From positions 1 to 38,315 of the forward strand of contig DVMV01000028.1 of NCBI GenBank assembly GCA_018714785.1: a DNA stretch of 38,315 nucleotides, given 5' to 3'. Below, piece by piece: positions 808 to 4,930 of this stretch (the first letter of the stretch is position 1; the number at the start of each line of letters is the position of its first letter). The notes under the pieces were generated by a model that was not told the DNA's origin, made no database searches, and saw nothing but the letters and a program-made list of their open reading frames with translations. Position numbers and translations under genes: made by a program. The stretch is from Candidatus Alloenteromonas pullicola. GTDB taxonomy: Bacteria > Bacillota_I > Bacilli_A > RFN20 > CAG-826.

Positions 808-1116
808 TTAGGCGTTGATGGACTTGACGACCAGGCAGGTGTACGGCTGGCGGTGGCCGATGGTCTTGCGCTCATTGGCCTTGGCCTTGTACTTGTAGAC
901 GCGGACTTTCTTCCCGAGCCCCTGCTTCTCGACCTTGCACTCGACCGAGGCGCCCTTTACGTAGGGGTTGCCGACCTTGGTGGATTCCCCACCGAGGAAC
1001 AGGACCTTGTCCAGGGTGACGTCCTTGCCGACCTCGGCGTCGAGCTTCTCGACGTAGATGTGGTCGCCGACGGAGACGGTGACTTGCTTACCGCCGGTTT
1101 CGATGATAGCGTACAT
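808..1116 (-). CDS. rplU: 50S ribosomal protein L21
   Basis: [11 protein letters not shown]...[32 protein letters not shown] upstream. Confidence 0.97.
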
Positions 1117-1272: not shown

Positions 1273-1887
1273 CTACAACATGCCGGCAGACCGGAAGGAA
1301 AACTGGCGTCCCTCGGCCCTTATCAGGTGGTCGATGAGCCTTATCGAGAGGGACGAGAGGCGCCTTTCGATAGATATCGTCAGCTCGATATCGGACTTCG
1401 ACGGCAGGGGATCCCCGCTAGGGTGGTTGTGCAACAGCACCACCGCCGCGGCCCCCTTCCTCACCGCCTCCTTCGCCACCATGCCGGGATCGAGGGGGAG
1501 ATGGTCGGAGAGGCTATGGCAGAGGACGCTATGTCCAAGCGGGTGGAGCGCGGAAGAGAAGCAATACAGCCGCACCTCCTCGCCCCGGAATCCAAATCCG
1601 GATATCCCACGCCGGCTGGCTATCTGGAAGCAGGCCTGCAGGCGCAGCGATATGGCGACGGAGACGCCGCCCCCATCCATTAGCTCCTCGGCCGAGCAGC
1701 GCGAAAGCCCCTTCAGCCCGCCATGCCGATATAGCAGGTCCCTGCCGATGTCCAATGCCGAGCGCCCCTTGACCCCCGACCCGATGAGGAGGGCCAAAAG
1801 CTCCTCGTCGGAAAGCGAATCGATGCCTTCGCGCCTTGCTTTTTCCCGCGGGCGGTAAAAGGAGGGGATGTCCTTGATCGCCCCCAT
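1273..1887 (-). CDS. radC: RadC family JAMM-domain protein (DNA repair/competence-associated)
   Basis: LLHNHPSGDPLPSKSDIELT JAMM motif; N-terminal IPSFYRPREKARREGIDSLSDEELLALLIGSG. Start chosen at ATG 1887 (MGAIKDIP). Confidence 0.93.
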   Translation of the reverse strand: MGAIKDIPSFYRPREKARREGIDSLSDEELLALLIGSGVKGRSALDIGRDLLYRHGGLKGLSRCSAEELMDGGGVSVAISLRLQACFQIASRRGISGFGFRGEEVRLYCFSSALHPLGHSVLCHSLSDHLPLDPGMVAKEAVRKGAAAVVLLHNHPSGDPLPSKSDIELTISIERRLSSLSIRLIDHLIRAEGRQFSFRSAGML

Positions 1888-2078
1888 CAGGGATGTAGTT
1901 CCCACTCGAATTTGTAGCCCCCTGGAAGGCTGACCTTCGACTCCCCGCCCACGAACAGTCGATACGCGACGATGGTCAGTATAACCACGGTGAACACAAC
2001 GAAAACCGTCGTTAGCGTCAGCGCCTCCCCCGGCCTTATGCCATCCATTTCCTCTTGGCTGAGTTTGCATAGTCCCAT
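1887..2078 (-). CDS. Small single-TM peptide with double-glycine-like leader (63 aa)
   Basis: MGLCKLSQEEMDGIRPG|EALTLTTVFVVFTVVILTIVAYRLFVGGESKVSLPGGYKFEWELHP; AGGAGG 8 nt upstream; stop overlaps radC ATG (TGATG). Confidence 0.8.
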   Translation of the reverse strand: MGLCKLSQEEMDGIRPGEALTLTTVFVVFTVVILTIVAYRLFVGGESKVSLPGGYKFEWELHP

Positions 2079-2079
2079 G

Positions 2080-2110
2080 GAAAAGACCTCCTACCGATTA
2101 AGTAGGAGGC
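2080..2110 (-). promoter_or_regulatory. Perfect hairpin containing the SD of the 63-aa peptide gene, possibly also valS attenuator/terminator
   Basis: Minus strand CCTCCTAC-TTAATCG-GTAGGAGG-TCTTTTCC-ATG; 8-bp stem whose 3' arm is AGGAGG. Confidence 0.7.
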
Positions 2111-2130: not shown

Positions 2131-4707
2131 TTAAGCGAGGCTTTCCAGCAGCTTCCTGACTTCCTGCAGCTGCTTGCGGTTGTCATCCAGCTTCCCCTGC
2201 TCCAGCTCGACCTTGGCCTTGGGGGCTTTGGCGAGGAATCCGGGGTTGGAGAGCATCTTCTCGCCGCGGGCGATCTCGGATAGGAGGGCCTGCTCCTTCC
2301 TCTGCAGCTTGGCGACCTGCTCCTGCTTCGGCTCAGCCGAGGAGAAGGCGATCACGAAGCCCGAGTAGGTGTAGGCGGAAAGCGACTTGATTTCCTTGGC
2401 TATGACGACCTTCGAGGCGAATAGGAACCTGGATAGGTAGTCCTCGATGCCTTTGAAGGGGGCCTTCGGGGCGATGTCGACCTCGATCGGCGCGTTGGGG
2501 GCCAGCCCGGCCTCGCTCTTGTAGGAGCGCCCGTCCTTGATCATCTTCTTCAGCAGCTCGCCCTGCCTCTCGGCGGAGGGGAATGAAAGCGCCTTGTCAT
2601 ACTCGGGGTAGCTCTCGAGCATTATCGATTCCTTGTGCAGCGGAAGGGAGAGGTAGATCTCCTCGGCGATGAAGGGGCAGTACGGGTAGATCATCTTGAC
2701 GATGGCCTCGATGACCTTGTATAGGACCGTCTTGATCATGGCCTTGTCAGCGCTCCTCTCGAGGCTCACCTTGCTCATCTCGAGGTAGAAGGAGCAGAAA
2801 TCGTCATAGACGAAGTCGTAGAGTACCGAGCTCGCGGCCCCGAACTGGTACCTCTCCATCTTGGAGGTGACCGAGGCGACGGTCTTGTTCAGGCGGCTGA
2901 GGATGTACTTCTCCAGCGTCCCAAGCCTCTTCCTGTCGAGCTGCTCGGGCGCGAAATCATCGCCCAGCGACATCTCGACGTAGCGGGCCGAGTTCCAGAT
3001 CTTGTTGAGGTAGTTGGCCGCGGCGGAGAGCTTCTCGTCGCTGTAGCGCATGTCCAGCCCCGGCGTGGAGTTGGTGGTGATGAAGTAGCGCAGCGCGTCG
3101 ACGCCGTATTTCTCGATGACGTCGATCGGGTCGACGCCGTTGCCTAGCGACTTGCTCATCTTCCGCCCCTGCTCGTCGCGGATGAGTCCGTGGATCACGA
3201 CCTCCTTGAACGGGGATTTGCCGGTGAAGTGCAGCGACTGGAAGATCATCCTCGAGACCCAGAAGAATATCAGGTCGTACCCGGTGAAAAGCACCGAGGT
3301 CGGGAAGTAGCGGTCGAAGTCCTCGCCGCCATCGGGCCAGCCCATGGTCGCGAAAGGCCATAGCCCCGAGGAGAACCAGGTGTCCAGCACGTCCTCGTCC
3401 TGGTCGTATAAAGATGGGTCGAGCGGGGTTTCGCTGACGACGACCGAGCCGTCCTTCTTGCTGTAATAGGCCGGGATGCGGTGCCCCCACCACAGCTGGC
3501 GGGATATGCACCAGTCCTCGCAGTTGGCCATCCAGCGGAGCAAAACCTTCTCAAAGCGCTTGGGCAGGAACTCGACCTTCCCCTCGCCCTTCTGGCTCTC
3601 TATGACCTTCTCGGCGAGCGGCTTCATCCGCACGAACCACTGCTTGGAAAGCATCGGCTCGACGACCGCCCCGCTGCGCTCGGAATGCCCGACGGAGTGG
3701 ACGATCTTCTCGATCTTCTGCAGATGGCCGCCGCTTCTTATGTCCTCGACCAGCTGACGGCGGCACTCGTAGCGGTCGAGCCCGGCGTATTTTCCGCACT
3801 TTTCGTTGGTATGGGCGTGCTCATCGAGCACCTTTATGAACGGCAGGCAGTACTTCTTGGCCAGGTTGAAGTCGTTGGGGTCGTGGGCTGGCGTGCACTT
3901 CATCGCCCCGGTGCCGAAGCTCAAATCGACGTAGGGGTCGGCCATGATCGGGAGCTCCTCGCCGTTGGCGGGGTTGATGACCTTCTTGCCGACCAATCCC
4001 TTGTAGCGCTCATCCTTGGGGTTGACGAAGACGGCGACGTCGCCGAACATCGTCTCCGGGCGGGTGGTGGCGACCACGATCTGGCGATCTTCCCCCACCA
4101 CGTCGTAGAGGAAGTAGAAGAACTCGCCCTGGTCGTCGCTATGGACGACCTCGATGTTGGAAAGCGCGGTGCATAGCTCCGGGTCCCAGTTGATGATCCG
4201 CTCGCCGCGGTAGATGAGCCCCTCGTCGTAAAGCGTCTTGAAGACGCGGAGGACGGCCTTGGACAATCCGGGGTCGAGGGTGAAGCGCTCGCGGGTGTAG
4301 TCGACGGAAAGCCCGACGCTGGCCCACTGCTGATGGATGGTCTTGGAGTACTCCTCCTTCCAGGAGAAGGCGACCTCGAGGAACTTCTCCCTCCCGAGGT
4401 CGTAGCGGCTTATGCCCTGCTTGCGCAGGCGCTCCTCGACCTTGGCCTGGGTGGCGATCCCGGCGTGGTCGACGCCCGGGACCCAGAGCACGTCGAAGCC
4501 CTTCATCCGCTTGTAGCGGGCGGTGATGTCGTCGGGCACGGTGTCCATTACGTGGCCAAGGTGCAGCTTCCCGGTGACGTTGGGCGGGGGGATCACGATG
4601 GAGAAGGGCTGCTTGCCCTTGTCCCCCGCGGTGAAATACCCTTTGCCCTTCCAGTTCTCGTATTTGCCTTCCTCGACGGCCTTGTGGTCGTAGCGTTTGT
4701 CTAGCAT
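2131..4707 (-). CDS. valS: Valyl-tRNA synthetase
   Basis: Class I aaRS motifs (PPPNVTGKLHLGHVMD, KMSKSLGNGVDP). Start ATG 4707 with SD GGAGG; the upstream ORF extension is T-box leader. Confidence 0.98.
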   Translation of the reverse strand: MLDKRYDHKAVEEGKYENWKGKGYFTAGDKGKQPFSIVIPPPNVTGKLHLGHVMDTVPDDITARYKRMKGFDVLWVPGVDHAGIATQAKVEERLRKQGISRYDLGREKFLEVAFSWKEEYSKTIHQQWASVGLSVDYTRERFTLDPGLSKAVLRVFKTLYDEGLIYRGERIINWDPELCTALSNIEVVHSDDQGEFFYFLYDVVGEDRQIVVATTRPETMFGDVAVFVNPKDERYKGLVGKKVINPANGEELPIMADPYVDLSFGTGAMKCTPAHDPNDFNLAKKYCLPFIKVLDEHAHTNEKCGKYAGLDRYECRRQLVEDIRSGGHLQKIEKIVHSVGHSERSGAVVEPMLSKQWFVRMKPLAEKVIESQKGEGKVEFLPKRFEKVLLRWMANCEDWCISRQLWWGHRIPAYYSKKDGSVVVSETPLDPSLYDQDEDVLDTWFSSGLWPFATMGWPDGGEDFDRYFPTSVLFTGYDLIFFWVSRMIFQSLHFTGKSPFKEVVIHGLIRDEQGRKMSKSLGNGVDPIDVIEKYGVDALRYFITTNSTPGLDMRYSDEKLSAAANYLNKIWNSARYVEMSLGDDFAPEQLDRKRLGTLEKYILSRLNKTVASVTSKMERYQFGAASSVLYDFVYDDFCSFYLEMSKVSLERSADKAMIKTVLYKVIEAIVKMIYPYCPFIAEEIYLSLPLHKESIMLESYPEYDKALSFPSAERQGELLKKMIKDGRSYKSEAGLAPNAPIEVDIAPKAPFKGIEDYLSRFLFASKVVIAKEIKSLSAYTYSGFVIAFSSAEPKQEQVAKLQRKEQALLSEIARGEKMLSNPGFLAKAPKAKVELEQGKLDDNRKQLQEVRKLLESLA

Positions 4708-4717
4708 AGGTTCCTCC

Positions 4718-4930
4718 AGAAAATAAAAAGCGCTCCGCGATGGGGCGCGGCGCGCTGTACCACCCATCTTCCCATCGCGTTGCGATGGCTCGATTCTGCC
4801 CCTTAACGCGGGGCGACGTACCCTAAGAAGCGACTCATGGGGACCGCGCGCCCAGCTTCCACCATCCTGGGCTCTCTATCTCACGGCTATCCCAATCCCT
4901 CTTCCTCAACGGGACGGGTGAATTATATGT
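4718..4930 (-). promoter_or_regulatory. T-box leader of valS, specifier GTC (Val) at 4832-4834
   Basis: Minus strand AGAGAG, GGTGGAAGCTGG, ATGA-GTC-GCTTC, GGGTGGTACAGCGCG T-box sequence, terminator AGCGCGCCGCG-CCCCAT-CGCGGAGCGCTTTTTATTTT. Confidence 0.93.

What the first reader, a model, noticed from the sequence alone, without database searches (positions are those of the whole stretch)
1887..2110. Leader-type small peptide (double-glycine-like) between valS and radC
The 63-aa product MGLCKLSQEEMDGIRPG|EALTLTTVFVVFTVVILTIVAYRLFVGGESKVSLPGGYKFEWELHP fits the double-glycine leader pattern L(-12)S(-11)xxE(-8)[LM](-7)xxI(-4)xx G(-1), with Pro in place of Gly at -2. It is followed by a hydrophobic segment and a distinctive SLPGGYKFEW C-terminus. 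Double-glycine leaders are established in class II bacteriocins and peptide pheromones exported by C39 peptidase ABC transporters. Its stop overlaps the radC ATG (TGATG), suggesting translational coupling to a gene that is competence-induced in streptococci. A secreted or membrane signalling/toxin-like role is inference.
Basis: partly seen in the sequence, partly recalled or inferred. Interest (0 to 1): 0.72.

Follow-up and report, generated by a model that had tools for sequence, protein, structure and literature searches.

The report
Core membrane peptide with cleavable leader
This 63-residue gene is a real, single-copy, vertically inherited small membrane protein made with a "double-glycine" leader of the kind usually seen on bacteriocins; its likely leader-cutting enzyme is a conserved C39 peptidase that in this lineage has lost the ATPase of the export pump it came from, so it looks like a household membrane protein using a bacteriocin-type processing step, not a secreted toxin or signal.

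Summary
Window 1887-2078 (-) encodes a 63-aa peptide under strong purifying selection, with a C39-type leader (L-12, E-8, M-7, I-4, PG) and one membrane helix. Its stop overlaps the radC ATG by one base. Homologues occur once per genome in 88 of 96 relatives (62 of 62 at >=90% complete) and in other families of the class, nearly always between valS and radC; most outside the own family carry a canonical GG.

Its likely partner is a C39 peptidase encoded directly upstream of ybeY. In this order that protein has lost the ABC ATPase. In other families the slot holds a full C39-ABC transporter, a stand-alone C39, or nothing. In two sister genomes without C39 the peptide is leaderless, its start codon falling at the predicted cut site; a third without C39 has GG changed to GR.

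Best reading: a core membrane peptide matured by an export-uncoupled C39 peptidase. A Tad-pilin idea was tested and rejected. Mycoplasma-like genomes have C39-ABC at ybeY plus GG-leader peptides, suggesting a candidate substrate class for the orphan transporter 0401 of JCVI-syn3A. The mature peptide's function is unknown; cleavage is inferred.

The parts
1887..2078 (-). gene for the 63-aa double-glycine-leader membrane peptide (stop included)
   Evidence: ORF and Shine-Dalgarno; homologues in 88/96 relatives; dN/dS below 1
2028..2078 (-). leader, residues 1-17 (MGLCKLSQEEMDGIRPG); predicted C39 cut after G17
   Evidence: conserved L-12, E-8, G-1; missing in the C39-less genomes G211 and G284
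1968..2024 (-). single transmembrane segment, residues 19-37
   Evidence: hydropathy; helix 16-43 with pLDDT about 90
1902..1928 (-). conserved tail motif LPGGYKFEW, residues 51-59
   Evidence: F57 invariant; P52, G53, G54 and W59 at 90% or more in the order; a similar S..G.(I/V).(I/L)P....W tail in the other families
2087..2092 (-). ribosome-binding site AGGAGG
   Evidence: sequence
1273..1887 (-). radC; its ATG overlaps the peptide stop (TGATG)
   Evidence: Pfam RadC; peptide-radC adjacency in most loci
2131..4767 (-). valS, upstream neighbour in most of the order and in most f20 loci
   Evidence: Pfam tRNA-synt_1; contexts

Best explanation
A core single-pass membrane peptide is synthesised with a 17-aa C39-type leader. 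A dedicated C39 cysteine peptidase, encoded elsewhere at the ybeY-cdd-era-recO locus, cuts after Gly17. In this order that peptidase keeps membrane helices but has lost the ABC ATPase, so cleavage is uncoupled from ATP-driven export. The mature ~46-aa peptide stays in the cytoplasmic membrane, most likely N-out/C-in, with its conserved LPGG(Y/F)KFxW tail at the cytosolic face, where it acts as a small constitutive membrane component. Shown by sequence: conservation, leader consensus, C39 catalytic residues, ATPase loss, fixed loci, joint loss of leader and C39. Inferred: the cut itself, the enzyme-substrate pairing, topology and the housekeeping role. The cellular target is not known.
For: One copy in 62/62 good relatives, nearly always next to radC; same slot in other families of the class. 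C39 protein (C14 and H93 invariant; Q8, D109 near-invariant) directly upstream of ybeY; 18/18 without Walker A or signature motif, Pfam sees only C39. Six genomes without a C39 hit in the ybeY slot also gave no ybeY hit, so an assembly gap is likely. In f20 the ybeY slot holds a full C39-ABC, 10/10 with Walker A. Joint loss in f25: G211 and G284 have no C39 (phoH-ybeY slot empty) and a leaderless 41-aa peptide whose ATG aligns with residue +1/+2 of the mature form; G382 has no C39 and a GR leader; G369 and G322 have a C39 relative and GG. Net positive charge after the helix in 83-100% of order and f20/f25 peptides. Peptide and C39 persist in families without the Tad system.
Against: No cleavage data. 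The own genome has Pro at -2, where the C39 cleft is narrow (PMC6959990); other f1 genera have Val, Gly, Pro, Ser, Ala, Thr or Cys there. In PCAT1 cleavage needs the transporter core, so activity of an ATPase-less protein is not guaranteed. The f25 joint-loss pattern rests on six genomes and two or three events; the short f25 C39s lack the conserved Gln, and G452 has a short C39 with a GK leader. The two genes are unlinked, so pairing is by co-conservation. About 19 relatives also carry a full C39-ABC that could serve the same peptide. Own assembly is 86% complete.
Confidence: 0.6

Rival explanations
1. Secreted bacteriocin or peptide pheromone exported by a C39-ABC transporter.
For: Leader fits; an f20 homologue scores just under the cut-off of the lactobin/cerein class IIb model (21.1 vs 21.5 bits); full C39-ABC in f20 and in about 19 relatives.
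Against: Single-copy, vertically inherited, no immunity, kinase or regulator neighbour; conserved mature part; own C39 has no ATPase; leaderless homologues persist without C39.
Confidence: 0.12
2. Cell-surface peptide, exported in the families with a full C39-ABC and simply inserted from the cytosol in this order, where the export step has been lost.
For: Full C39-ABC at the ybeY slot in f20 and several mycoplasma-like genomes; repeated ATPase loss (G098, G111 and the whole order). Faecalibacterium MAM is a non-bacteriocin GG protein proposed to use a PCAT (PMC8836110).
Against: The leaderless f25 forms need no exporter; the charge pattern predicts the tail inside.
Confidence: 0.15
3. Flp-like major pilin of the order's compact Tad system, with C39 replacing the prepilin peptidase.
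For: TadA/B/C cluster in the own genome (L161); no Peptidase_A24 in 88/96 genomes.
Against: TadA absent in families f3, f4 and f5, which keep the peptide and mostly C39; the Tad cluster has its own small leaderless pilin-like ORF.
Confidence: 0.03
4. The leader is only an N-terminal extension; C39 and peptide are unrelated core genes.
For: Genes unlinked; P or V at -2 in much of family f1.
Against: -12/-8/-1 pattern kept across families; GG altered or leader absent in the three f25 genomes with no C39.
Confidence: 0.1

Closest known systems
Double-glycine (class II bacteriocin/pheromone) precursors processed by PCATs (consensus in PMC6959990)
   Same: Leader L(-12)xxxE(-8)[LM](-7)..G(-1); C39 peptidase in the genome
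   Different: Core, single-copy, unlinked to its C39; mature part is one membrane helix plus a conserved tail; no ATPase on the partner; leaderless homologues exist
Mbov_0121-family peptidase domain-containing ABC transporter (NCBIfam NF045998) and JCVI-syn3A gene 0401 (PMC6609329)
   Same: The C39-ABC at the ybeY slot of the mycoplasma-like genomes read here is presumably this family (not tested against the model); the own C39 matches NF045998 weakly (E 4.6e-7, far below cut-off)
   Different: The own protein has no ABC ATPase. No GG substrate had been named for 0401; a candidate class is proposed here
FapD (PMC5557850) and FilB (NCBIfam NF050078), C39 peptidases without an ABC transporter
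   Same: C39 cysteine peptidase working outside an ABC protein (FapD C38A abolishes secretion)
   Different: FapD is periplasmic and serves amyloid secretion; ours starts directly with the C39 domain and keeps membrane helices of an ABC exporter
Faecalibacterium MAM (PMC8836110)
   Same: GG-leader protein that is not a bacteriocin, proposed to use a PCAT
   Different: No sequence relation shown; PCAT intact
Flp/Tad and type IV prepilins
   Same: Short cytosolic leader ending in Gly before a membrane helix
   Different: No A24 peptidase, no E5 motif, independent of TadA

Membership tests
Double-glycine (C39) leader peptides | L(-12)xxxE(-8)[LM](-7)...G(-2)G(-1) leader | tested here: met
   E-8 62/65, G-1 64/65, L-12 57/65; -2 is Gly in 24/25 of f2-f8, but Pro in the window and 13 other own-genus members
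Double-glycine (C39) leader peptides | Removal of the leader by a C39 peptidase | not testable with these tools
   Catalytic C39 present; joint loss of leader and C39 in f25 is indirect
PCAT export substrate | Cognate C39-ABC transporter with functional ATPase in the same genome | tested here: not met
   Only C39 protein found in G000 is 402 aa with no ABC_tran, Walker A or signature; assembly 86% complete
Class II bacteriocin | Accessory, clustered with immunity and transport genes | tested here: not met
   Fixed valS-radC slot, neighbours all housekeeping
Class II bacteriocin | Match to a curated bacteriocin model | tested here: not met
   Window peptide: no NCBIfam match and no Pfam match above cut-off; best homologue 21.1 vs 21.5 bits
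ComC-type pheromone | Adjacent histidine kinase/response regulator | tested here: not met
   None in the conserved contexts
Flp/Tad pilin | Co-occurrence with TadA ATPase and A24 prepilin peptidase | tested here: not met
C39-ABC (PCAT) for the partner protein | C39 + transmembrane domain + nucleotide-binding domain | tested here: not met
   C39 and membrane segments only; 18/18 without NBD motifs
C39 peptidase for the partner protein | Catalytic Cys, His, Asp and oxyanion Gln | tested here: met
   C14, H93 invariant; Q8, D109 near-invariant

The most novel reading that the evidence does not exclude
An ancient, non-bacteriocin maturation pair conserved from gut Bacilli to mycoplasmas: a core GG-leader membrane peptide (valS-radC-...-rplU region) and a C39 protein at the ybeY locus. 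The C39 protein has repeatedly lost its ATPase, so the leader may act as a brake on membrane insertion and not as an export tag. The mycoplasma version would be the missing substrate of the orphan C39 transporter kept in minimal cell JCVI-syn3A (gene 0401).
Probability: 0.35. Interest if true: 0.85.

Novelty: new variant of a known kind. Interest (0 to 1): 0.66.

Why it matters
C39/double-glycine processing is taken as a mark of secreted bacteriocins and pheromones, and in PCAT1 cleavage is coupled to export (PMC6959990). Here it appears to serve a household membrane peptide, with the exporter's ATPase lost in several lineages. That warns against calling every GG-leader ORF a bacteriocin and gives a natural system for separating cleavage from transport. 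It also gives a testable substrate for a transporter retained in the minimal cell, for which the published model found no GG peptide and provisionally assigned lipoyl-peptide import (PMC6609329).

Tried and rejected
1) Tad/Flp pilin matured by C39: suggested by a TadABC cluster and missing A24 peptidase, rejected because families f3, f4 and f5 lack TadA yet keep the peptide, mostly with C39. 2) Multi-copy bacteriocin: rejected, one copy per genome apart from G085; among the f20/f25 loci read only L223 shows tandem copies. 3) Known family: no Pfam, NCBIfam or PHROG match above cut-off, no meaningful PDB relative. 4) SD-sequestering hairpin as a conserved regulator: strong in the window but not kept in relatives. 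5) Genomes apparently without C39 (G035, G057, G074, G094, G029, G033): no ybeY hit either, so an assembly gap is likely. 6) Literature: no description of this peptide family found.

Full report
Observation. The window encodes, on the minus strand at 1887-2078, MGLCKLSQEEMDGIRPG|EALTLTTVFVVFTVVILTIVAYRLFVGGESKVSLPGGYKFEWELHP, with AGGAGG eight bases before the ATG and a stop that shares one base with the radC start (TGATG). The neighbours are valS and radC in a run of housekeeping genes. The leader register (L-12, E-8, M-7, I-4, G-1) matches the published C39 consensus (PMC6959990) except Pro at -2.

It is a real gene. tblastn finds it once per genome in 88 of 96 relatives, and in all 62 that are at least 90% complete with at most 5% contamination (G085 has two). 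dN/dS is about 0.02-0.2 in most measurable pairs. In a 65-sequence alignment Gly(-1) is kept in 64, Glu(-8) in 62 and Leu(-12) in 57. Families f2-f8 have GG (24/25 Gly at -2); other genera of family f1 have V/G/P/S/A/T/C and the own genus mostly P. Mature part: one membrane helix, then a tail with LPGG(F/Y).F.W. AF2 gives a leader helix 8-13, a helix 16-43 and a small strand pair in the tail (low overall confidence).

Location. The peptide is nearly always immediately upstream of radC, usually with valS before it, even where valS has moved. A profile search of 395 genomes of the class finds it outside the order in two further families, f20 and f25, e.g. MYELTEMEMQSINGG|SALVYLVYVILGVGVYKLIRSKRGRIGLPRLIQIEWS. 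There it lies before radC-mreC-mreD, usually with minC-minD-spoIVF-type genes further on, sometimes with a SPOR-domain (SpoIIB-like) gene between.

Partner. The own genome has one detected C39-domain protein, 402 aa: C39 plus membrane segments, no ABC ATPase. Orthologues are found in almost all of the order, directly upstream of ybeY-cdd-era-recO in nearly all loci read, with catalytic Cys and His invariant. In f2, f4, f6 and f7 they are shorter (about 130-276 aa). Six genomes with no C39 hit in this slot, or only a fragment or an unrelated ABC hit, also gave no ybeY hit, so a gap in the assembly is the likely cause. In f20 the same slot holds a complete C39-ABC (10/10 with Walker A). In mycoplasma-like genomes read with code 4 the C39-ABC also lies just upstream of ybeY or in the same ybeY-era run; G098 and G111 lack Walker A and signature there. 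ATPase loss thus occurred more than once while C39 was kept.

Natural experiment. In f25, G369 and G322 have a short C39 relative upstream of ybeY and a GG leader; G452 has a short C39 and a GK leader. G382 has no C39 detectable and a GR leader. G211 and G284 (one genus) have no C39 in the phoH-ybeY slot, and their peptide starts directly with the mature part: MTTSSILMFVAIAAGIAAIYKLLTSGRGRVSIPGIEMTWGK, with GGAGG right before the ATG and in-frame stops upstream. Against G369 the new start codon falls at residue +1/+2. The simplest reading is that the leader exists for C39, the cut is after G(-1), and the mature peptide functions without any exporter. Caveat: six genomes, two or three events, and the short f25 C39s lack the conserved Gln.

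Mechanism. Shown: conservation, loci, catalytic residues, ATPase loss, joint loss. Inferred: C39 cuts in the cytosol; the mature peptide sits in the membrane N-out/C-in (positive charge after the helix in 83-100% of the order and f20/f25 peptides); the role is constitutive. In PCAT1 cleavage is coupled to transport (PMC6959990), so an ATPase-less partner would be an uncoupled version. The idea that the leader delays insertion until cut is a hypothesis only. What the mature peptide does remains unknown; gene neighbours hint at the cell envelope, but wall-less mycoplasma-like genomes keep what may be a diverged form.

Alternatives. A Tad pilin role was tested and rejected. A bacteriocin or pheromone is disfavoured by single copy, vertical inheritance, neighbours and the missing ATPase.

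Wider link. The JCVI-syn3A model paper states that C39 transporter 0401 has no known GG peptide (PMC6609329). GG-leader peptides lie immediately upstream of rplU in G252 (L222) and G098 (L330) and after ileS-lspA in G383 (L282). The profile scores are weak (2.5e-4 and 0.002 per genome; 0.08 for G098 with a profile that includes the other two), so the link rests on leader, helix, tail and synteny together. The syn3A sequence itself was not examined.

Noticed in passing
G000:C5, locus L161 1071-5155 (-): Compact Tad-like cluster (TadE-like, TadA, TadB, TadC, TadE-like) next to acpP, in a genome without a detectable prepilin peptidase (A24 absent in 88/96 relatives). A small leaderless pilin-like ORF (MSELKGQLLGILLTLVAF...) at about 895-1051 (-) could be its pilin.
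   Followed up: partly
L232-L235, L238, L239: Family f17: a C39-ABC transporter with one or more GG peptides just downstream, several ending in a shared S(S/T)(S/A)IRR...C tail; a separate, apparently conserved peptide system.
   Followed up: no
window 2087-2109: Perfect 8-bp inverted repeat (CCTCCTAC...GTAGGAGG) that would hide the peptide's Shine-Dalgarno in the mRNA; not kept in close relatives.
   Followed up: yes
L223 5478-6067 (+): Three tandem copies of the peptide gene between valS and the SPOR-protein/radC genes in one f20 genome.
   Followed up: no
L284 6287-8125 and L285: Mycoplasma-like C39 transporter (612 aa) whose ATPase part has lost Walker A and the signature motif while the C39 residues look intact.
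   Followed up: partly
L051 and L090 (G085): Two peptide copies on different contigs of one genome, one with GG, one with GK at the cut site; could be a real duplicate or mixed strains.
   Followed up: no
L212, L213, L218, L220, L221, L223, L224, L227, L228, L230, L231: A small SPOR-domain (SpoIIB-like) membrane protein gene lies between the peptide and radC in many f20 and f25 genomes.
   Followed up: no
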